This document shows, one piece after another, positions 25,017 to 32,980 of a DNA stretch of 64,000 nucleotides. Within the stretch, counting starts at the first letter, position 1. Every line of letters begins with the position of its first letter. A program made the position numbers and the translations under genes. Under the pieces are notes generated by a model. The model searched no databases. It was not told the origin of the DNA and saw only the letters and a list, made by a program, of their open reading frames with translations. Origin of the DNA: Achromobacter seleniivolatilans (GTDB lineage: Bacteria; Pseudomonadota; Gammaproteobacteria; Burkholderiales; Burkholderiaceae_B); assembly GCF_030864005.1 (NCBI RefSeq), contig NZ_CP132976.1:2294001-2358000 (forward strand), in the 5' to 3' direction.

Positions 25017-25799
25017 ATGAAATTAGCCACTTGGAACGTGAACTCCCTGAACGTGCGCCTGCAACAGGTGCTGGACTGGCTGGCGGCCAATCCGGTTGAC
25101 GTGCTGTGCATTCAAGAACTGAAACTCACGGACGACAAGTTCCCCGAGGCGGCCTTCAAAGAAGCCGGTTATCACGCCGTCTGGGCTGGCCAAAAGACCT
25201 ATAACGGCGTCGCCATCGTTTCGCGTATGCCCGGCACGTCCATGGTCCGCAACATTCCCGGCTATGAAGACCCGCAGCAACGCGTCCTTGCCCTGACCTT
25301 CCCCAGCCCCGAAGGCGACGTGCGCGTGGTTTGCGCCTATTGCCCCAACGGGCAGTCGCTGGATTCGGACAAGTACGTCTACAAATTGGCTTGGTACGAG
25401 GCCATGCACAAATGGCTGGCCGAGGAAATCAAGCAGTATCCCCGGCTGGCCGTTCTGGGCGACTACAACATTGCCCCCGCCGACGAAGACGTGCACAACC
25501 CCGAGAAATGGGAAGGCCAGGTCCTGGTGTCCGAACCTGAACGCGCAGCCCTCCGCGCCCTGCTCGATCTGGGCCTGACCGATTCTTTCCGCCTGTTCGA
25601 GCAGCCGGAAAAGTCGTTTTCCTGGTGGGACTACCGGCAGTTCGCCTTCCGCCGCAATGCCGGTTTGCGCATCGACCACGTCCTGCTGTCCGCCCCGCTC
25701 GTCAAGCGCTGCGTGGCCTGCGTGATCGACAAAGAACCCCGCCGCAACGAGCAGCCCTCGGACCACGCGCCGGTAGTTGCCACCCTGGAATTTGCCTGA
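25017..25799 (+). CDS. xth: Exodeoxyribonuclease III
   Basis: A 260-residue AP endonuclease/3'-5' exonuclease of the EEP fold used in base-excision repair. Catalytic motifs are in order: ATWNVNSL (Asn7), CIQELKL (Glu near 34), YCPNGQ (near 110), VLGDYNIAP (Asp/Asn near 151-153), and the C-terminal SDHAPVVATLEF with its catalytic His. RIDHVLLS near 222 completes the site. Length is standard. The ATG at 25017 is where similarity begins; the open frame continues upstream without family match. The tRNA-Ala gene follows 68 bp downstream on the same strand. Confidence 0.94.
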   Translation: MKLATWNVNSLNVRLQQVLDWLAANPVDVLCIQELKLTDDKFPEAAFKEAGYHAVWAGQKTYNGVAIVSRMPGTSMVRNIPGYEDPQQRVLALTFPSPEGDVRVVCAYCPNGQSLDSDKYVYKLAWYEAMHKWLAEEIKQYPRLAVLGDYNIAPADEDVHNPEKWEGQVLVSEPERAALRALLDLGLTDSFRLFEQPEKSFSWWDYRQFAFRRNAGLRIDHVLLSAPLVKRCVACVIDKEPRRNEQPSDHAPVVATLEFA

Positions 25800-25820
25800 A
25801 AATTTTTGTGTGGCGCCGTG

Positions 25821-25850
25821 TTGCGCGGCGATTTAAAGTTCAGGTATAGT
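25821..25850 (+). promoter_or_regulatory. Promoter of tRNA-Ala
   Basis: TTGCGC (25821-25826), 18 bp spacer, TATAGT (25845-25850). Transcription would start about 10 bp before the mature tRNA. Confidence 0.5.
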
Positions 25851-25867
25851 TTTGCACTTGCTTCATC

Positions 25868-25943
<76 letters not shown>

Positions 25944-26044
25944 AGACAACGTCCAGCACAGTCCACGAAAGTATATGAACTCCTTGGAAATCAAGCCTCT
26001 AAGGGCATTGACTGTCTGACAGAGTTCCAGAAAGTATGTGGACA

Positions 26045-26115
26045 TATACCGTCGCTCGACGGTATCTTCGACGGTATCTCACCAGACCCGGGCTTAAACC
26101 CCGTCAGATACCGTC
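26045..26115. repeat. Four-copy GACGGTATC-type iteron cluster before the integrase remnant
   Basis: Direct copies of CGACGGTATCT at 26057-26067 and 26069-26079 (12-bp period) are flanked by inverted copies: TATACCGTCG at 26045-26054 and AGATACCGTC at 26106-26115, the last ending at the integrase ATG. The position suggests integrase or excisionase arm sites, or an operator controlling int. Confidence 0.7.
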
Positions 26116-27080
26116 ATGCCCTTATCCGATACCGCCCTGCCGCCAGGCGAAGCCCGCTGACAAGCCTTACAAGCTTTCCGATGGTGGAGGCCTGTACCTG
26201 CTAATCAACAAGATTGGAAAGTACTGGCACTGGGACTATCGCCACACTGGCAAGCGAAAGACGTTGGCCGTCGGGGTCTACCCCGACACAGGGCTCGCCA
26301 AGGCCCGGGAGCGCCACCAGGACGCCGGCAAACTGCTGGCCGAGGGGATTTGACCCATCCGCCCAAAGGAAAGCCGACAAGCAGGCAACGGCCCTTGCTA
26401 CGGCGCACTCCTTTGAGGCCATCGCGCGCGAGTGGTTTGCCAAGTAAGCGACACAATGGGCTGCAAGCCATTCCGACAAGGTCATTGCTCGACTTGAGCG
26501 CGACCTGTTTCCCTGGCTTGGACCCCGCCCCATTGTGGAGATCACGGCGCCAGAATTGCTCAAGTGTCTGACGCGAATAGAACAACGCGCGGCAATCGAA
26601 ACCGCTCACCGCGCGCTACAGAACTTCGGCCAGGTAGCGCGCTACGCCGTGCAAACGGGTCGCGCCGAACGCGACGTTTCCCACGACTTGCGTGGTGCGC
26701 TCGCGCCGTGGCGTCCTGTGCAATACGCCCACGTCGTAGAACCTGAGAAAATCGCCATGCAGCTTCGTAAAATCCACGACTGCAACGGCACATTCCCCGT
26801 GATATGCGCATTGCGCTTGGTGCGGATGCTGTTCGCGCGCACTGGCGAATTGCGGCATATGCGTTGGGCTGACATCAACCTCGATGCCGGACAATGGTGC
26901 TATTCGGTTTCCAAAACTGGCAGACAGCACATCGCCTCTCTGTCATCCCAAGCGGTCGAAATTCTGCGCGAACTGCAACCGCTGACCGGGCATCACGAAT
27001 ATGTATTTCCTGGTAGCGGAACAGACCGCGACAAGCTCAAGCACGGGCTTGCCTGCCCCGGCCTGCTTCAAAAGCGATGA
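26116..27080 (+). pseudogene. Tyrosine-type (P4-like) integrase, frameshifted and truncated
   Basis: Pieces of one P4-type integrase occur in order but in different frames. An N-terminal DUF4102-like segment starts MPLSDTALPP, breaks near 26140, and resumes as KPADKPYKLSDGGGLYLLI...GKRKTLAVGVYPDTGLAKARE. It breaks again near 26352 and before 26535. The core-binding and catalytic part then runs 26535-27080 (EITAPELLKCLTRIE...LLFARTGELRHMRW). The first catalytic Arg (RTGELR) is present, but the HxxR box and the tyrosine are missing because the sequence ends after YVFPGSG. It lies in the same direction just after tRNA-Ala, the usual site for such integrases. The island is therefore probably immobile on its own. 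Confidence 0.88.
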
Positions 27081-27876
27081 TTTGGTTGTCCTTAAATCGT
27101 GAGGGCTTCATGCAGACGTTCCTAAGGCCCTTTTTTAGAAAATTCTACCTTCCACGGCTCTTACTATCCTGAGGGCATACCGTAGCACCTGACTCGACAA
27201 AAAAAGTGTGTGTGAAGGCCGCATCCAAGAGTCCCCACCTAACCATCCCTATGTGCACAATCCCTGCACACTTTTAGAAATATAAGCAGCCAGGACGACA
27301 GTTTTTCGCGCACATGGTCTCTATCAGTGCGAAAAACGATGCACCACCGTTGATAGCGGGCGCGGGCAAAACTTTTGAGACAAAGTTAAAGCCGAGACAT
27401 CGGCGAACATGGGTGCGTCGGATCTGCCCTGCGGGGTATAGTCAGTCACAGTGAAGGCTAGGCGAGCTTAGTCGGCACAAAATGAAGCTAGTCCCTATCA
27501 AGAAAAGAGCTTCACATAAGATCAGTAGTACGAACCCGCAAGGCCGAGATCGAGGTACGACTAGTTGCAAACAACTGTAGCGCTGATCGGGAGCATTTAC
27601 GGCAGTGGCAAAAAAAAATGTAAAACGACCACTGTCATGCCTCGGCTGACAGATCTACTCCACACTCTCAGAGTAGGTCGCAAAGCGCGGAAAATGAAAG
27701 ACCGCTAATTCAGTAGAGACAAGACGGAGCGTCAGCCTAATAGCGTGCGGCCGCGCTGAAAGGCAATCATTCATTGATCGCCGTACTCTCGACCTTTGGG
27801 ATACAGGAAAACCTCGCTAGTACGCTCGTACTGCAAACCGCAGATTCGATATCAAATTATCCGTATTCTAAAGGTA
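27081..27876. other. 796-bp island segment without a recognisable gene
   Basis: No open frame of credible composition. Structures seen: GTTTTTCGC (27301-27309) paired with GCGAAAAAC (27329-27337); GGCAGTGG (27601-27608) with CCACTGTC (27629-27636, one G-T pair) enclosing an A9 tract; and a distant pair AAAAGTGTG (27202-27210) / CACACTTTT (27267-27275). It may be decayed DNA or carry a non-coding RNA; I cannot tell which. Confidence 0.5.
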
Positions 27877-29247
27877 TTACTCAATTCGCGCTGGGCGTGC
27901 TGCTTTTCTGACCACATCTGCGACGTGACTCGTCAGCCCAACATCTCCGATCAACAAAATACCCTCCGTTGGATCTAGAGAATTTAACATGCGCCGCAGT
28001 GATTCGAGACCATCCGCAATTGAGAATCTACGCCACACGTGCGGCTCGCCTGGAACAAGAACTTTGCTGAGACTCTGGGTGGCACCCCGATGTAACTGGA
28101 CAATCCACGCCTGCATTCCGTCGTGTACCCATTCAAATCGAATTGGTCCGAGTCGGCTCACTGCACAATCAAATAATGCGACAACATCGTCGACAATTCG
28201 AGCCGGCAGAGTAGTACGAGGCGCAATCCCCCGCATCAGATCTTCACCCTCACCCTCTTTGCCTTCGATTACAGGTGTCCCATTTGCATCAATAATCAGG
28301 GCACCTGAGTATTTGGAAGGGACGGCCTGCTGCGCCAATACTGACGACAAATATTCTCCTGATGGATCTTCTTTGGCCATAAGGAGGAACGGATCAATCC
28401 AGCCATGATGAGTCGTGTATTTCCCCGGGACTTGCTCGCGAGGACACGTACGTATCCAAAACTCCGCACTGCCTGTATCCTTTCCGAAGACAAATGGTGC
28501 AATTCGCCTACCAATAACCATCGTTCTAGGGATCGGCAACTGTGCTTCATTTGCAATCATAAGGCCATAGGCCTTATCGCCAATCAAACGACTAAAGTGG
28601 TTGGGCCACACATTGGACGGGGAAATTTGCAAGACACCGACGCGTTCCAACTCCCATCCGAGGATGTGGGTATTTCGCCAACCGCGCGGCTTGGGATGAA
28701 CACTAAATTCCAGTCGATAGTCGTCATTAATTTCACCATCCAACGCAACCCCATAAACAGTTTCAATAATGTTTGTCGCCCAAGCTCGAGGCAATGACGC
28801 CACCCCTGGTTTCTCCACGCAACGAGGAGTGTCGTCTGGCGCGAATTCCACCGTACCTCCCTGCATAACCCCTGAAACGCCACCATCGTGTATGTCGATG
28901 GTCTCGTTAATAATTACGTGAAAACCAGCAGTCAAAATGCGCTCCGCCACCGCGATCACTTCTTGCGCATTTTCTAATCCATAGACAAATTCGTGACTTC
29001 GCAGGTCATTTGGCTTAAAGCTTCGCACGTTGAGGGACGCTTCAGAACTACGAGCTAGCAACGATATAACAGCGTCGCCTAGATCTTTGAATTTGTGATT
29101 TGGCTCATATCCCAACACGCGCGCATATGCCTGTCGCACTCCTGTGCCCAAATCGGGAGAAAAACTGACAAACTGCGCCACGTTGACGAAGTTTGCGAGC
29201 TGATCCAAGGACTCATCTTTACGAAAAGAATACGAAGTTTGCTGCAT
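27877..29247 (-). CDS. PEP-synthase-like protein: ATP-grasp-like region plus truncated phosphohistidine motif
   Basis: A 456-residue protein, last gene of the island cassette. The middle (about 105-215: INETIDIHDGGVSGVMQGGTV...CVEKPG...ETVYG...EINDDYRLEFSVHP) and the segment RFEWVHDGMQAWIVQLHRG (about 365-383) resemble the nucleotide-binding domain of PEP synthase/pyruvate phosphate dikinase, whose end reads E-W-x-x-D-G-x-x-x-x-x-Q-x-R. Near the C-terminus, GLTSHVADVVRKAARPA copies the swivelling-domain motif GG-x-TSH-x-x-x-x-x-R, with the phosphorylatable His at about 441. The protein stops there: no rest of swivel domain and no PEP-binding barrel. No continuation is evident in other frames. 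The ATG at 29247 is chosen; a TTG directly abuts the previous stop. Function unknown; ATP-dependent phosphotransfer or signalling is inference. Base composition is lower in G+C than the chromosome. Confidence 0.72.
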   Translation of the reverse strand: MQQTSYSFRKDESLDQLANFVNVAQFVSFSPDLGTGVRQAYARVLGYEPNHKFKDLGDAVISLLARSSEASLNVRSFKPNDLRSHEFVYGLENAQEVIAVAERILTAGFHVIINETIDIHDGGVSGVMQGGTVEFAPDDTPRCVEKPGVASLPRAWATNIIETVYGVALDGEINDDYRLEFSVHPKPRGWRNTHILGWELERVGVLQISPSNVWPNHFSRLIGDKAYGLMIANEAQLPIPRTMVIGRRIAPFVFGKDTGSAEFWIRTCPREQVPGKYTTHHGWIDPFLLMAKEDPSGEYLSSVLAQQAVPSKYSGALIIDANGTPVIEGKEGEGEDLMRGIAPRTTLPARIVDDVVALFDCAVSRLGPIRFEWVHDGMQAWIVQLHRGATQSLSKVLVPGEPHVWRRFSIADGLESLRRMLNSLDPTEGILLIGDVGLTSHVADVVRKAARPARIE

Positions 29248-29259
29248 AGTGCGATCCAA

Positions 29260-29853
29260 TTAAATACGATGATTCCGGAGAACTTGAGCAAGTTGAATCA
29301 GTGGTGCCGCCCCCTCTGCGATTTGCTCAATTCGCGTCGCTGCGGCTGTAATCAAAGCTTCTCCTTGCTGCGACCCCACGCAATTTCCCAGCTCATCCAA
29401 GATCGGTAACCCCAAGCGACTCGCACATCGGAATTCCGTAGCACAGCCAACACTGAACTCCCAGCCCGAAACAAGCACTATCGTCGAAACGAACTTTTGA
29501 ATGATTCGAAGCCAGAAAGATAAATACTCTTGTTGCGACCAATCCGGAACCGCAAGACTCGCGGGTTCTATCACTGGCACACTAGAGCGCTCACGAATGG
29601 CGGAAGCGACACGATGGATAGCTTTCTCATTAGGTTGGATCACATCGCTCGTCAAACGGAGCAGATACTCTTGCGACCCCATCACAAAATTCCGTCCTGT
29701 CGATGCATACCATGCGGAAAACCGATTACCGGTGGTAATTGGTCCACTGACGTAGGTTGCCTGTGAATTCGTGACAACGCATCCGACAGCCTGAAGCATC
29801 AGGCCCTGCTCGCGTGTGACACGCCGATCCTCATCAACAGTAATCATTCTCAT
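29260..29853 (-). CDS. Nucleoside 2-deoxyribosyltransferase-like (DUF4406-like) protein
   Basis: A 197-residue protein, middle gene of the island cassette. It has the fold signature of small nucleoside-deoxyribosyltransferase-like proteins: the first strand TYVSGPITTGNRF (about 33-45), a central DWSQQEYLSFWLRIIQKF helix (about 104-121), and the C-terminal VSGWEFSVGCATEFRCASRLGLPILDE (about 127-153), where the Glu of ATEF is at the position of the family's nucleophile. Real members cleave or transfer the base of deoxynucleosides; relatives in conflict systems may act on NAD-like molecules. Activity here is inferred only. It ends 12 bases before the next gene's ATG, and an 88-bp gap separates it from the ATPase gene. 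The start could also be the Met at residue 3. Confidence 0.72.
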   Translation of the reverse strand: MRMITVDEDRRVTREQGLMLQAVGCVVTNSQATYVSGPITTGNRFSAWYASTGRNFVMGSQEYLLRLTSDVIQPNEKAIHRVASAIRERSSVPVIEPASLAVPDWSQQEYLSFWLRIIQKFVSTIVLVSGWEFSVGCATEFRCASRLGLPILDELGNCVGSQQGEALITAAATRIEQIAEGAAPLIQLAQVLRNHRI

Positions 29854-29941
29854 TCACATAAAATTGCGCGAGCGTAGGACACCCTACACCCGACCCTTAC
29901 AAAGCGACAGTTTACTCTCAAGAAGCTGTAACTTTTTGGCT

Positions 29942-32398
29942 CTAACGAACCTCAGCCACTTTCCTCAGGAGGACCGCAACTTTCTTTCGATAGCCGTCGT
30001 CCAGTTCCGACGCGTATGTCCTCACCCATCCTTCAGCGATCACCTCAGTGACCTCGTCCGCGCCCAGCGTTGCGATCGCACTTTTCACCGCCCGCATTTC
30101 AGTAGACGTTAGGCCTGTAGTCGTGTCGCGGCCGTGCGCCGTCGAATCTTCGGGCGCGCACAGCTGCCCGCCGCCTGCGTACGCTTCGCAATGCAGTGCT
30201 AGTAGACAGAAAAACTCTTGCATCGGCGTTTTACGAGGGTCCGTCTTCCCGACAAACCGACTGGAATACGCTTCAATCGATGTCGTCCGCGCCCTTTCCC
30301 TAAGGGTCTTATCCAACATGTCGACCAACTGCTCAACCTGCTCAACTCGAATTCCTGCAATCGTCGCCTTTAGGTCCGTATAACCAAGGAAAAGGGATGC
30401 CCTGATTAGGTCGGATCTCCGCGCCTCAATATCGGATTTAATTTTTTCTAAATTCGTGCTGAAATTATCCACCTTTGATAGGAAACTGTGTATTAGCGCG
30501 ATGCGCTTCTCACCATCCGGAGGCAGAACTAGATATTTTTCGTCAATGCGTCCAGTCCGCTTAATCGCAGAATCGATGCGATCCTCGTAATTTGTCGCGA
30601 CGATAAAAAATGCCCGCTCTTTTCGACGAAGATCGTTCAATTTGGTTAACATCCCCGGAGTCATAAATTGAAATACCGTGTCCTGAGTTGCGTAAATATT
30701 CGAATCCCGATCCAATAAAAAATGATCGATTTCATCAAACAAAATAACGCACTCCGGCTGTGCCATGAGTGCCGTAAAAATGTGTTTAGCCCTAGCTTCA
30801 ACTTGGATTCCGCCGGATGCTAGAAAATCACTAACCGTAATTGTAATTAAACGACGACCTAGCGCCTTTGCCACACTTTCAGCAACGGTCGTTTTCCCCG
30901 TCCCGGGAGGACCGTATAAAAGCATTGAAAACTTGTTTATACTGTTCCTCGATGATTGCGATTCGACAAAAGACTCCCCAATCCTTTCGTAAATTTTAAG
31001 CGGCTCACCGAGTCCACTGACGGGCTCGTTATTTTTAATTTCAGACCAATTGGCCGTTTTCAAAACCTCGTGAGTAAATCTTGAGAGAACAAGCGTCTTT
31101 CGAGCCACGTGGCGATGCAACGAATTGCGGAATGCCAGCATAAAATCCATAACTTGGCTTGTTTCCCATAGGTGAACGACATTCGGTGTGTTGACGTGTT
31201 CGGAATGCCACCCGACCATTTCCCCATCACCGCCGTCAGGCGCCGCCACCCGCACAGCACGTGCTCTTAACCATTGCCAATAGCGCCGTAAGAGACCCAT
31301 GCATTTTGAACCGTAAGTATCATAAATTTCTTCAGCGTCAAATATCTCGCATGCACGCATAAGAGAATTTGCAATCTCGACACTTACAGGAAACAAAACC
31401 AAGCCTTGCATGGTCGACATGAACGGCTTGACAGGCCGCCAGTATGCACTTTCATGCTGAGTGTCTTTCAATACTGAAAGTACGCGATCGAAAACTGTCC
31501 GATCGACCGAACTGCGACGAGAAATCAGCATCCCCTCAAGACAAAACATCAATTCAGCTGGGTCGAAGCGGCTATCCGGTATTGAGCTAAACGAAAGTTG
31601 CTCATGAAGCGTTGTTTCGAAAAATTTGTGAGATTCCTCAAAAAAAGCAACCAGCTCCTCACTATTTTGCGTGCTGCCAATTGGTCCACTCAGGCGCCTA
31701 ATAATCTGCACTAGACGGAGCACAGGAAATGCGTGATTAACCGAAATACCACCCGCGGGCTTAAATAAAACCTTGGGAGTTCTGGCTTTTACCCATGCTT
31801 TTGCTTTATTCAGCGCGCATTCCTTAACCTTTACTGCAATGTCTGCCCATCTATTACTAAAGTCATTCGATGAGGTAGCGCCCCCCCCCCTACATGCCCC
31901 GAATTCTGTCCAATTTGCCTGGCTTATTTCAGCCAACCATGCCAGAGTAAATACATCATCATTGCCATATGTGGCTGAATGCGTTACACCTTTATGATTT
32001 TTCTTCTCAATATTATGGAGCAAGGCGCCGCAGGCCTTAAAAATACGGTCCATCAATGAGTTATCTGTCTCACCTTTTTTTTTCGCCAAGAGAATATCAG
32101 ACGAACTATCTATTTTAAATATATTAGCTTTTGAAGAAATTGCCAGATTTTTATCGCCGGAATCACTGAAAAATCCACCGAAACGCAATAAGGCATTAAT
32201 AATCATGGCGGTAGTGCTTTGGGACAAGCTCTTCGGCGCGCTGCCCTCACCATCACTTAACTGATACGGCCATGCATGGTCGTCGCTAAAAGTTACTTTG
32301 TATATTTTCGCTACAGACACAAGCATGGTCTCGATATCCGCAAGATCTCGCGAATCAACTGGGTACTCTTCAGTCAGGTATGTTTCCAATGTGGTCAT
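29942..32398 (-). CDS. Large AAA+ ATPase with unrecognised N-terminal region
   Basis: An 818-residue protein, first gene of the island cassette. One classical AAA+ module spans about 455-640: Walker A YGPPGTGKT (about 490), a pore-loop-like stretch after it, Walker B VILFDEID (about 553), sensor 1 IVATNYEDRID (about 598) and the arginine finger region KRTGRIDEK (about 610). The spacing is that of FtsH/p97-like ATPases. The N-terminal 450 residues are mostly helical-looking and match nothing I know; the C-terminal 150 residues are also unassigned. No protease or nuclease motif is seen. GGAGGG precedes the ATG. The coding strand holds an A9 run near codon 107 and a G10 run near codon 172, both potential slippage sites. 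It presumably is the sensor or remodeller of the cassette (inference). Confidence 0.86.
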   Translation of the reverse strand: MTTLETYLTEEYPVDSRDLADIETMLVSVAKIYKVTFSDDHAWPYQLSDGEGSAPKSLSQSTTAMIINALLRFGGFFSDSGDKNLAISSKANIFKIDSSSDILLAKKKGETDNSLMDRIFKACGALLHNIEKKNHKGVTHSATYGNDDVFTLAWLAEISQANWTEFGACRGGGATSSNDFSNRWADIAVKVKECALNKAKAWVKARTPKVLFKPAGGISVNHAFPVLRLVQIIRRLSGPIGSTQNSEELVAFFEESHKFFETTLHEQLSFSSIPDSRFDPAELMFCLEGMLISRRSSVDRTVFDRVLSVLKDTQHESAYWRPVKPFMSTMQGLVLFPVSVEIANSLMRACEIFDAEEIYDTYGSKCMGLLRRYWQWLRARAVRVAAPDGGDGEMVGWHSEHVNTPNVVHLWETSQVMDFMLAFRNSLHRHVARKTLVLSRFTHEVLKTANWSEIKNNEPVSGLGEPLKIYERIGESFVESQSSRNSINKFSMLLYGPPGTGKTTVAESVAKALGRRLITITVSDFLASGGIQVEARAKHIFTALMAQPECVILFDEIDHFLLDRDSNIYATQDTVFQFMTPGMLTKLNDLRRKERAFFIVATNYEDRIDSAIKRTGRIDEKYLVLPPDGEKRIALIHSFLSKVDNFSTNLEKIKSDIEARRSDLIRASLFLGYTDLKATIAGIRVEQVEQLVDMLDKTLRERARTTSIEAYSSRFVGKTDPRKTPMQEFFCLLALHCEAYAGGGQLCAPEDSTAHGRDTTTGLTSTEMRAVKSAIATLGADEVTEVIAEGWVRTYASELDDGYRKKVAVLLRKVAEVR
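31881..31890 (-). repeat. Homopolymer of ten G (coding strand) in the AAA+ gene
   Basis: Ten consecutive C on the plus strand encode part of CRGGGAT at about codon 172. With ten the gene is in frame; gain or loss of one base would truncate the protein before the ATPase module. Confidence 0.9.
32075..32083 (-). repeat. Homopolymer of nine A (coding strand) in the AAA+ gene
   Basis: Nine consecutive T on the plus strand encode LysLysLys in AKKKGE near codon 107. A9 runs are classic sites of polymerase or ribosome slippage. Confidence 0.88.
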
Positions 32399-32428
32399 TT
32401 TCGCCCTCCGTTGTTGTTTAAGTTTTCC

Positions 32429-32447
32429 ATTGTAACGGCACTGTTAC
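32429..32447 (-). promoter_or_regulatory. Candidate promoter/operator of the island cassette
   Basis: On the minus strand TACAAT (32429-32434) is a good -10 box about 30 bp before the ATPase ATG. It overlaps a small palindrome GTAAC-N6-GTTAC (32432-32447), a possible repressor site. No strong -35 box is seen. From here to about 32600 I see no gene. Confidence 0.4.
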
Positions 32448-32599
32448 TGCAAAACGCGTCCTCGACCAATTCTCAGCATCTGGCGGGCTACTCAAAGGAG
32501 ATTATCCTTCCGCAGCCTCAGCGGAACGAAGAGGTGTGGGCACCGTCAAGTGATGTAGCAGCGCCACAAACTGAGACGACCTGTTGTGAGGCAATATGG

Positions 32600-32890
32600 A
32601 GGATAGTCGGCCCCGCTCGAACCATTCAATCTTGGCAATGCACGTTCAAACTGGAAATGGGGCTGCGAGGATGAAAGACATGCAGCCGCTGGTGCATCAC
32701 TCTGGCCGAGACCTCCAATCTTGCTTAAACCCCAATCGACAGTTACAGCGGGCTATGGCGTACGCTGCTCCGAGAGCGACGGTTCTGAGCTGCCTTGGCC
32801 GAGCGCGTCAACCGCGTCCTGAAGGGCGCGCTGCTGCCGCAACGTCCTGCCAATATCAACCAAGACAAGGCTGAGGTTCAAGATGTCCGT
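32600..32890 (+). pseudogene. IS3-family transposase (OrfB) remnant
   Basis: Three-frame traces of the C-terminal part of an IS3-type integrase: MKDMQPLVHHSGRDLQS (matching the LVHHSDRGLQY signature), then in another frame GYGVRCSESDGS, then LAERVNRVLKGALLPQRPAN (matching NALAERVNxxLK). Frame changes and stops make it non-functional. No terminal inverted repeats are evident. It marks the right-hand end of the low-G+C island; the chromosomal symporter gene begins shortly after. Confidence 0.68.
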
Positions 32891-32980
32891 CCAAATACAG
32901 GTAATACCTACGGCCAATGATCCGTCCTACCTGTCAACCTATCGCAGGTCGGATCAAACGAACCCGAACCGACCCCGCCC

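What the first reader, a model, noticed from the sequence alone, without database searches (positions are those of the whole stretch)
27877..32398. Three-gene island cassette: AAA+ ATPase, deoxyribosyltransferase-like protein and PEP-synthase-like protein
Seen: three intact same-strand genes with short gaps (88 and 12 bp) form the only intact cargo of a tRNA-linked island and are AT-richer than the flanks. Known: AAA+ remodellers, nucleoside-deoxyribosyltransferase-like folds and PEP-utilising ATP-grasp enzymes are each found in nucleotide metabolism, and the first two recur in bacterial conflict systems. Inferred: a sensor ATPase plus two nucleotide-handling enzymes could deplete or modify (deoxy)nucleotides or make a signal upon infection. 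I do not recognise this trio as a named defence system.
Basis: partly seen in the sequence, partly recalled or inferred. Interest (0 to 1): 0.87.

Follow-up and report, generated by a model that had tools for sequence, protein, structure and literature searches.

The report
Dikinase–deoxyribosyltransferase–AAA defence-like cassette
Three genes carried on a small mobile island form a conserved unit, found beside known antivirus genes in distant bacteria, that probably protects cells by changing or destroying nucleotides with an unusual phosphate-transferring enzyme.

Summary
Three intact minus-strand genes (gaps 88 and 12 bp) sit in a ~7.0-kb insertion behind tRNA-Ala that is missing at that place in several close relatives. 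They encode (1) a classic AAA ATPase with a long, mostly helical N-terminal part, (2) a DUF4406/nucleoside-deoxyribosyltransferase-like protein (NDT), and (3) a protein without a family name whose model shows an ATP-grasp plus phosphohistidine swivel domain, as in rifampin phosphotransferase and pyruvate phosphate dikinase, with catalytic residues kept in 87 of 88 relatives but no PEP/pyruvate domain. The trio is a conserved operon: same order and strand in 13 of 13 loci with all parts, NDT and dikinase fused in 7. The dikinase family (2348 database hits) also swaps partners: membrane proteins in place of the AAA, an anti-phage-type dGTPase with QueC and PfkB-NDT, or a YfbR-like phosphatase with a kinase-adenylosuccinate synthetase. 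Neighbours include type I restriction, HerA, AbiE and MADS-type genes (no matched control). PADLOC 2023, Pfam, NCBIfam and ten searches of open-licence papers named nothing like it. Best reading: a nucleotide-targeting immune module; its chemistry is inferred and nothing has been tested at the bench.

The parts
25868..25943 (+). tRNA-Ala (CGC), insertion site of the island
   Evidence: ARAGORN; tRNA end is the left junction against relatives
25945..32977 (.). Insertion (island), about 7.03 kb, absent at this site in 7 of 29 same-genus loci read
   Evidence: GC dip
26036..26353 (+). Integrase-like fragment 1 (read by eye)
   Evidence: ORF list; broken
26535..27080 (+). Integrase-like fragment 2 (read by eye)
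   Evidence: ORF list; broken
29942..32398 (-). AAA ATPase, 818 aa: mostly helical N-terminal part (about 1-420) plus classic AAA module (Walker A 496-502, Walker B D555/E556)
29260..29853 (-). DUF4406 / nucleoside 2-deoxyribosyltransferase-like protein, 197 aa, invariant Glu140 in an S-x-G-C-x-x-E motif
   Evidence: PF14359 E 9.4e-7; PHROG_355 E 1.4e-7; alignment A3
27877..29247 (-). Dikinase-like protein, 456 aa (460 from TTG at 29259): N-terminal domain of unassigned fold, ATP-grasp domain, C-terminal phosphohistidine swivel motif T443-S444-H445 (numbered from the TTG)

Best explanation
The cassette is a horizontally moved immune (anti-phage or anti-mobile-element) module that acts on nucleotides. 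SHOWN by sequence and model: a conserved AAA-NDT-dikinase operon, the NDT and dikinase often one polypeptide, catalytic residues kept, known defence genes among the neighbours, and a dikinase family that elsewhere lies beside dNTP- and nucleoside-acting enzymes. INFERRED: the NDT breaks the base-sugar bond of a (deoxy)nucleotide; the dikinase loads its swivelling histidine from ATP and passes the phosphate to the product (or to the nucleotide itself), so that (deoxy)nucleotides are drained or turned into a dead end; the AAA protein, through its helical N-terminal part, holds the pair inactive or activates it when infection is sensed. In some loci a membrane protein stands where the AAA would be, which suggests that the NDT-dikinase pair is the enzymatic core and that the third gene is an exchangeable trigger or executor.
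For: Linkage: AAA, NDT and dikinase in the same order and strand in 13 of 13 loci with all parts, of 88 loci in which the dikinase was found. Searches that started from the AAA: 3 of 3 plasmid records and 3 of 3 viral contigs with the AAA also hold the dikinase; 34 of the 60 best AAA hits (own protein included) share a contig length with a listed dikinase or NDT hit, 26 do not (offset control 0.62 of 120). In the 9 trio genomes (chosen for the trio) the only full-length AAA relative is the one beside the pair; 0 of 8 genomes with NDT and dikinase but no AAA nearby hold one elsewhere (several are incomplete assemblies). Fusion. Mobility and rarity: own genome only among 61 (itself and 60 relatives), 1 of 369 in the class; empty site. 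Catalytic residues: K229, R270, E376, Q388 and H445 in 87 of 88. Fold. Defence neighbourhood: type I R-M, HerA, AbiEi, AbiEii, mad3, mad8 and PDC models among 111 neighbour proteins of 12 trio loci; by eye HerA- and SIR2-like genes next to L003, the nearest row in the tree, and type I R-M at L080; HipA at L123. Partner swapping: PADLOC dGTPase E 1e-142, PycTM E 2.8e-8; gene behind a plasmid-borne dikinase annotated 'anti-phage deoxyguanosine triphosphatase'; tree.
Against: No activity, substrate or protection was measured. The neighbour scan had no matched control, so enrichment is not quantified, and not every locus has defence neighbours (for example plasmid L136). Some dikinase relatives sit in plain nucleotide or phage contexts: phage replication genes (L087), a deoxynucleotide monophosphate kinase (L091), a dCMP deaminase in a Patescibacterium (L079), SpoVR (L066, L067). 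Foldseek itself ranked RimK- and Ddl-type ATP-grasp enzymes first (E 2.7e-5, TM 0.24) and rifampin phosphotransferase only 16th (E 2.4e-4). No sequence-level match to PPDK or NDT structures was found, and the profile alignment to the genome's own PEP synthase is not significant. In PPDK an arginine (R337, position recalled) stands where this family has H390. The AAA N-terminal part has no fold assignment.
Confidence: 0.5

Rival explanations
1. Signal-making module: the NDT-dikinase pair makes a nucleotide-derived second messenger and the AAA (or the membrane protein in other loci) is the responder, as in cyclic-nucleotide defence.
For: In L040, L044 and L060 a protein with 3-4 hydrophobic segments lies directly upstream of NDT-dikinase; L081 lies head to head with a protein matching PADLOC PycTM (E 2.8e-8) and, weakly (E 0.0035), a CBASS 2TM effector.
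Against: No cyclase was matched in the trio; the AAA module is not a known responder type (recalled); the membrane cases are few, and the L073 relative of that protein shows no hydrophobic segment by the same crude count.
Confidence: 0.2
2. Nucleotide salvage or metabolic module carried by chance on an island: NDT and a nucleoside-phosphorylating dikinase recycle bases, AAA is a chaperone.
For: Copies next to a dCMP deaminase and a guanylate-kinase-like gene (L079) and a deoxynucleotide monophosphate kinase (L091), and in a phage replication module (L087).
Against: No NDT or AAA was found beside those copies; the dikinase is absent from the 36 other genomes of the genus, patchy across phyla, and the trio is in several places beside defence genes.
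Confidence: 0.15
3. Enzymes for a modified base or nucleotide (DNA modification or natural-product like), with the dikinase as phosphorylating step.
For: In other loci the dikinase sits with QueC, PfkB-NDT, a nitroreductase, an OGG-like glycosylase, TGT (L076), or a kinase-adenylosuccinate synthetase fusion.
Against: I recognised no other intact gene of that kind among the island's ORFs, and in the neighbour families as listed nothing beyond AAA and NDT recurs steadily in the trio loci.
Confidence: 0.1
4. Decaying island passenger without present function.
For: The integrase is broken and about 0.8 kb and 0.6 kb without a clear gene flank the trio.
Against: All three frames are intact and invariant residues are kept; AAA and NDT relatives at 76% and 79% identity share a contig length (397422), though no dikinase of that contig is listed separately (hits are 90% clusters).
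Confidence: 0.05

Closest known systems
Pyruvate phosphate dikinase / PEP synthase
   Different: No PEP/pyruvate-binding domain, 460 aa, an added N-terminal domain, His390 in place of Arg (recalled)
Rifampin phosphotransferase (PMC4844700, start of abstract seen in a listing)
   Different: No domain between the two; different partners
VadK (PMC13400623, passages read)
   Same: Precedent for a PPDK-derived protein that kept ATP-grasp and His domains, lost the PEP domain and still autophosphorylates
   Different: Described as a metabolic regulator; no NDT or AAA partner is mentioned in the passages read
Nucleoside 2-deoxyribosyltransferases / DUF4406
   Same: PHROG_355 in 21 of 25 and DUF4406 in 17 of 25 family members; invariant Glu
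   Different: Fused or linked to the dikinase; substrate unknown. NDT domains were proposed as conflict effectors fused to AbiJ-type domains (PMC3710099, passages read)
IetAS
   Same: AAA module of IetA is the best PADLOC match (E 2.1e-17)
   Different: Match confined to the AAA module; no subtilase in the cassette
dNTP-depletion defence (dGTPase, dCTP deaminase)
   Same: Dikinase relatives sit next to an anti-phage-type dGTPase
   Different: No HD hydrolase or deaminase matched in the trio
Pycsar / CBASS
   Same: PycTM-like protein beside one NDT-dikinase pair (L081)
   Different: No cyclase or CD-NTase matched in the trio

Membership tests
PEP synthase / PPDK | ATP-grasp nucleotide-binding domain | tested here: met
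PEP synthase / PPDK | Phosphohistidine swivel domain with catalytic His | tested here: met
   aligned range ends at model 460 and PPDK 471; T-S-H 443-445, His in 87 of 88
PEP synthase / PPDK | C-terminal PEP/pyruvate-binding domain | tested here: not met
   protein ends at the swivel motif (460 aa); no Pfam family in the window's protein
Rifampin phosphotransferase | Rifampin-binding domain between ATP-grasp and His domains | tested here: not met
   the His motif follows Q388 of the ATP-grasp domain within about 55 residues
Nucleoside deoxyribosyltransferase-like fold | Profile match and nucleophilic Glu | tested here: met
   PHROG_355 E 1.4e-7, DUF4406 E 9.4e-7; E140 invariant in 25 of 25. 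That E140 is the nucleophile is inferred; no structure was predicted
Nucleoside deoxyribosyltransferase-like fold | Base-sugar bond cleavage or transfer | not testable with these tools
   needs enzymology
IetAS | IetA-type AAA protein over its full length | tested here: not met
   NF042959 56 bits against a cut-off of 510, residues 490-657 only
IetAS | Partner subtilase | tested here: not met
   the partners are NDT and dikinase
dGTPase / dCTP deaminase defence | HD dNTP triphosphohydrolase or cytidine deaminase | tested here: not met
   no such match in the trio
CBASS / Pycsar / Thoeris | CD-NTase, cyclase or TIR signal enzyme | tested here: not met
   no such match in the trio
Anti-phage defence system (general) | Recurs in defence islands | tested here: inconclusive
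   many PADLOC matches among 111 neighbours of 12 loci but no matched control, and which loci carry them is known by eye for two only
Anti-phage defence system (general) | Protects cells against phage | not tested
   needs plating assay

The most novel reading that the evidence does not exclude
A phosphohistidine dikinase family is the common hub of a whole, undescribed network of nucleotide-based immune modules. It moves phosphate or pyrophosphate from ATP, by way of its swivelling histidine, onto a (deoxy)nucleoside or nucleotide, making a dead-end or chain-ending nucleotide or an alarmone-like signal, while interchangeable partners supply the substrate (NDT, dGTPase, YfbR-like phosphatase) or carry out the response (AAA, membrane proteins).
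Probability: 0.22. Interest if true: 0.92.

Novelty: new variant of a known kind. Interest (0 to 1): 0.74.

Why it matters
Nucleotide-targeting immunity is known through hydrolases, deaminases and cyclases (recalled). A dikinase-type phosphotransferase as the constant part of such systems would add a new chemistry, and a family with 2348 database hits, hypothetical or unnamed in the 120 listed, would gain a testable role. It would also give the anti-phage-type dGTPase a recurrent partner in these lineages, and a handle on neighbouring gene sets that have no name either.

Tried and rejected
PEP synthase or rifampin resistance: rejected, third domain missing. IetAS: rejected. Internal duplication of the ATP-grasp C-lobe in the dikinase's N-terminal part: suggested by the order of strands and helices and by motif reading, but profile comparison gave probability 0.1, so that domain stays unassigned; VIA-align rows span mainly 168-460, so its fold was barely tested, and likewise residues before 358 of the AAA protein. 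NDT and dikinase by sequence against solved structures: no relative. Annotated phages: no match to the dikinase or to the AAA N-terminal part, although 9 IMG/VR contigs hold the dikinase and 3 of them the AAA. Promoter- and terminator-like sites: 5 and 9 against 6.2 and 6.4 in shuffles. A first clustering marked nearly every dikinase as 'DUF-PEP' because fused proteins linked the two groups; it was replaced by profile searches. L041 and L063 gave no dikinase frame in my gene caller and were left out of the counts. The tree used 86 of 88 sequences (rows of 380 residues or fewer dropped). In a phylum sample the dikinase is in 6 of 398 genomes and the AAA N-terminal part in 1, the own. Literature: ten searches; no title or abstract start listed describes the trio or the dikinase family. 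The library holds open-licence papers only.
Full report
WHAT IS THERE. The window lies at 2294001-2358000 of a 6.86-Mb genome. Three open frames run on the minus strand, in transcription order: an 818-residue AAA ATPase (32398-29942), a 197-residue protein (29853-29260) and a protein of 456 or 460 residues (ATG at 29247 or TTG at 29259, to 27877). The gaps are 88 and 12 bp. GC is 0.47-0.51 across 27-33 kb against 0.59-0.69 in the adjoining windows.

THE ISLAND. A tRNA-Ala(CGC) ends at 25943. The stretch 25300-25943 was sought in 37 genomes of the genus, own included, and matched at full strength in 36; the incomplete G033 gave only a weak match. Of the 29 other loci that I read, seven (L094-L100) pass from the tRNA end to the sequence found at ~32978 in the window within 66-158 bp; L103, L121 and L110 do so after 413, 663 and 972 bp; the other 19 show no match to that right-hand sequence within the roughly 3.6 kb held. 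The insertion is thus ~25945-32977. It also carries an integrase-like gene in two pieces. The dikinase profile finds nothing in the 36 other genomes of the genus nor in 24 of the order, and only the own genome among 369 of the class, so the cassette is a rare, acquired item. The genome's ordinary PEP synthase-like gene lies elsewhere (PPDK_N match at 2112054-2113052).

THE TRIO IS CONSERVED. The dikinase gave 2348 homologues, the AAA 704 and the NDT 15 (candidates capped for the first two, the best 120 listed for each of these). From 80 genome loci (best of 103) and 9 viral contigs, 88 including the window gave a dikinase frame. By profile they fall into: 13 with AAA and NDT (7 with NDT fused to the dikinase; in L080 the dikinase frame is split), 12 with NDT but no AAA found (in L051 and L059 the NDT gene is 3.4-4.0 kb off; L020, L027, L073 and L074 are contigs of 3.1-4.2 kb where an AAA could lie beyond the end), 28 with the YfbR/adenylosuccinate set or part of it, 24 with dGTPase, and 11 with none of these. 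In the 13 the order AAA, NDT, dikinase and the strand do not vary. Tests from the AAA side: its N-terminal part finds 3 plasmid records, all 3 with the dikinase about 1.6 kb away on the same strand; its profile finds 3 viral contigs, all among those with the dikinase; 34 of its 60 best hits share the length of their contig with a listed dikinase or NDT hit, 26 do not, a lower bound since only 120 dikinase hits are listed (offset control 0.62 of 120). In the 9 trio genomes, which were chosen for the trio, the only full-length AAA relative is the one at the trio; none of 8 NDT-dikinase genomes holds one (some are incomplete assemblies).

PARTNERS CHANGE. The tree of 86 dikinases puts the window with Paraburkholderia L003 (100/99) and needs 20 changes for the five contexts, where 4 would be the least, so partners have been swapped repeatedly. 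L040, L044 and L060 have a protein with 3, 3 and 4 hydrophobic segments directly upstream of NDT-dikinase, where the AAA would be; a relative in L073 lies downstream on the other strand and shows no such segment by the same crude count. L040 gave no Pfam family and L060 only one below its cut-off (L044 was not run); none of the three gave a PADLOC family. L081 lies head to head with a PycTM-like protein (E 2.8e-8). L074 has a fused NDT-dikinase followed by a YfbR-like HD protein (E 1.3e-17). The dGTPase context includes a protein matching PADLOC's dGTPase (E 1e-142), and often QueC, a PfkB-NDT fusion, a nitroreductase and an OGG-like glycosylase; on plasmid NZ_CP121643.1 a gene just behind the dikinase is annotated 'anti-phage deoxyguanosine triphosphatase'. 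The other large context holds a YfbR-like 5'-deoxynucleotidase (E 5.7e-6, just above its cut-off), DUF7002 and a kinase-adenylosuccinate synthetase fusion.

NEIGHBOURS. Of 111 proteins of 200 residues or more around 12 trio loci, scanned at E 1e-15, PADLOC families matched include a full set of type I restriction-modification, HerA, AbiEi and AbiEii, mad3 and mad8 (two proteins each), a type II methyltransferase and several PDC candidates (119 families in all, of which 25 are shown; one protein may match many). By eye, the type I set is at L080, HerA- and SIR2-like genes at L003, and the L086 trio lies between a portal-like and a terminase-like gene. I looked at 8 of the 13 plasmid records with the dikinase; one (L132) has no annotation. 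Of the other seven, the trio L123 neighbours HipA, L124 AbiE, SIR2 and DUF87, L133 VapBC, L134 AbiJ-NTD4, L135 dGTPase and a restriction-endonuclease annotation, L125 a nuclease and a UvrD-type helicase, and L136 an HNH endonuclease and otherwise metabolic and transport genes. There was no matched control, and my ORFs come from a simple gene caller.

AGAINST. Copies without NDT or AAA beside them occur in a phage replication module (L087, by eye; L088 has the same gene lengths), near a deoxynucleotide monophosphate kinase (L091), near a dCMP deaminase (L079), near TGT (L076) and near SpoVR (L066, L067). These suit an enzyme of nucleotide metabolism in general, and the defence role may belong only to some branches.

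MECHANISM. Most of the recognised recurrent partners act on nucleotides, nucleosides or bases, and one partner is fused to the dikinase. So the dikinase's acceptor is probably a (deoxy)nucleoside, a nucleotide or a sugar phosphate made by the partner. I think depletion or dead-end conversion of (deoxy)nucleotides under control of the AAA protein is most likely; signal making comes next, favoured by the membrane proteins found where the AAA would be. Neither is shown.

STANDING. A conserved, mobile, defence-associated unit is well supported (my estimate 0.75); protection against phage by nucleotide chemistry about 0.5; the exact chemistry is open. Among known kinds it is a new variant of nucleotide-targeting immunity; ten literature searches and PADLOC 2023 name nothing like it.

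Noticed in passing
28 loci of class B1 (L004, L010, L013 and others) and plasmid loci L124, L125, L133, L134, L136: Conserved set around the dikinase: YfbR-like 5'-deoxynucleotidase, DUF7002 protein and a P-loop kinase-adenylosuccinate synthetase fusion, on chromosomes and plasmids, some copies beside AbiE, SIR2/DUF87, VapBC or AbiJ-NTD4; the mix recalls 2-aminoadenine (Z) biosynthesis (recalled) and looks like a module of its own. A paper search for DUF7002 found nothing.
   Followed up: partly
24 loci of class B2 (L023, L035, L038, L039, L042, L045, L047, L048, L054 and others) and plasmid locus L135: Dikinase next to an anti-phage-type dGTPase, often with QueC, a PfkB-NDT fusion, a nitroreductase and an OGG-like glycosylase.
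   Followed up: partly
L040:1772-2707, L044:8714-9361, L060:8392-9327, L073:2111-2860: A protein family with 3-4 hydrophobic segments (none counted in L073), directly upstream of NDT-dikinase in three loci and downstream on the other strand in L073; possible membrane effector, no PADLOC match for the three run.
   Followed up: partly
L059:9986-14560: An 826-residue metallophosphoesterase protein with hydrophobic segments lies between the dikinase and the NDT gene.
   Followed up: no
L079:3013-5536: In a Patescibacterium the dikinase is followed by a dCMP deaminase and a guanylate-kinase-like gene (the latter by eye), hinting at nucleotide salvage.
   Followed up: partly
L087, L088, L091: Viral contigs carry the dikinase among replication genes (L087 by eye; L088 by equal gene lengths) or next to a deoxynucleotide monophosphate kinase (L091).
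   Followed up: partly
Model of the window's dikinase, 27877-29259: The best match among predicted viral structures is Gp139 of Bacillus phage G (E 6.4e-7, 329 columns), a possible relative in a jumbo phage.
   Followed up: no
L067:7114-9744: SpoVR beside the dikinase holds an intein-like insert with a LAGLIDADG domain; the SpoVR in L066, whose dikinase is nearly identical, does not.
   Followed up: no
L080:9986-11400: The dikinase of the Sinorhizobium fredii trio is split into two frames (199 and 318 aa), probably broken there.
   Followed up: no
L002 (G000:C1:2287312-2288226, about 6 kb before the window): A second PPDK_N match in the genome carries a TAG inside its frame.
   Followed up: no
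L086:1-10451: The fused trio sits between a portal-like and a terminase-like gene (by eye) in a viral contig, a place where phages may carry accessory genes.
   Followed up: no
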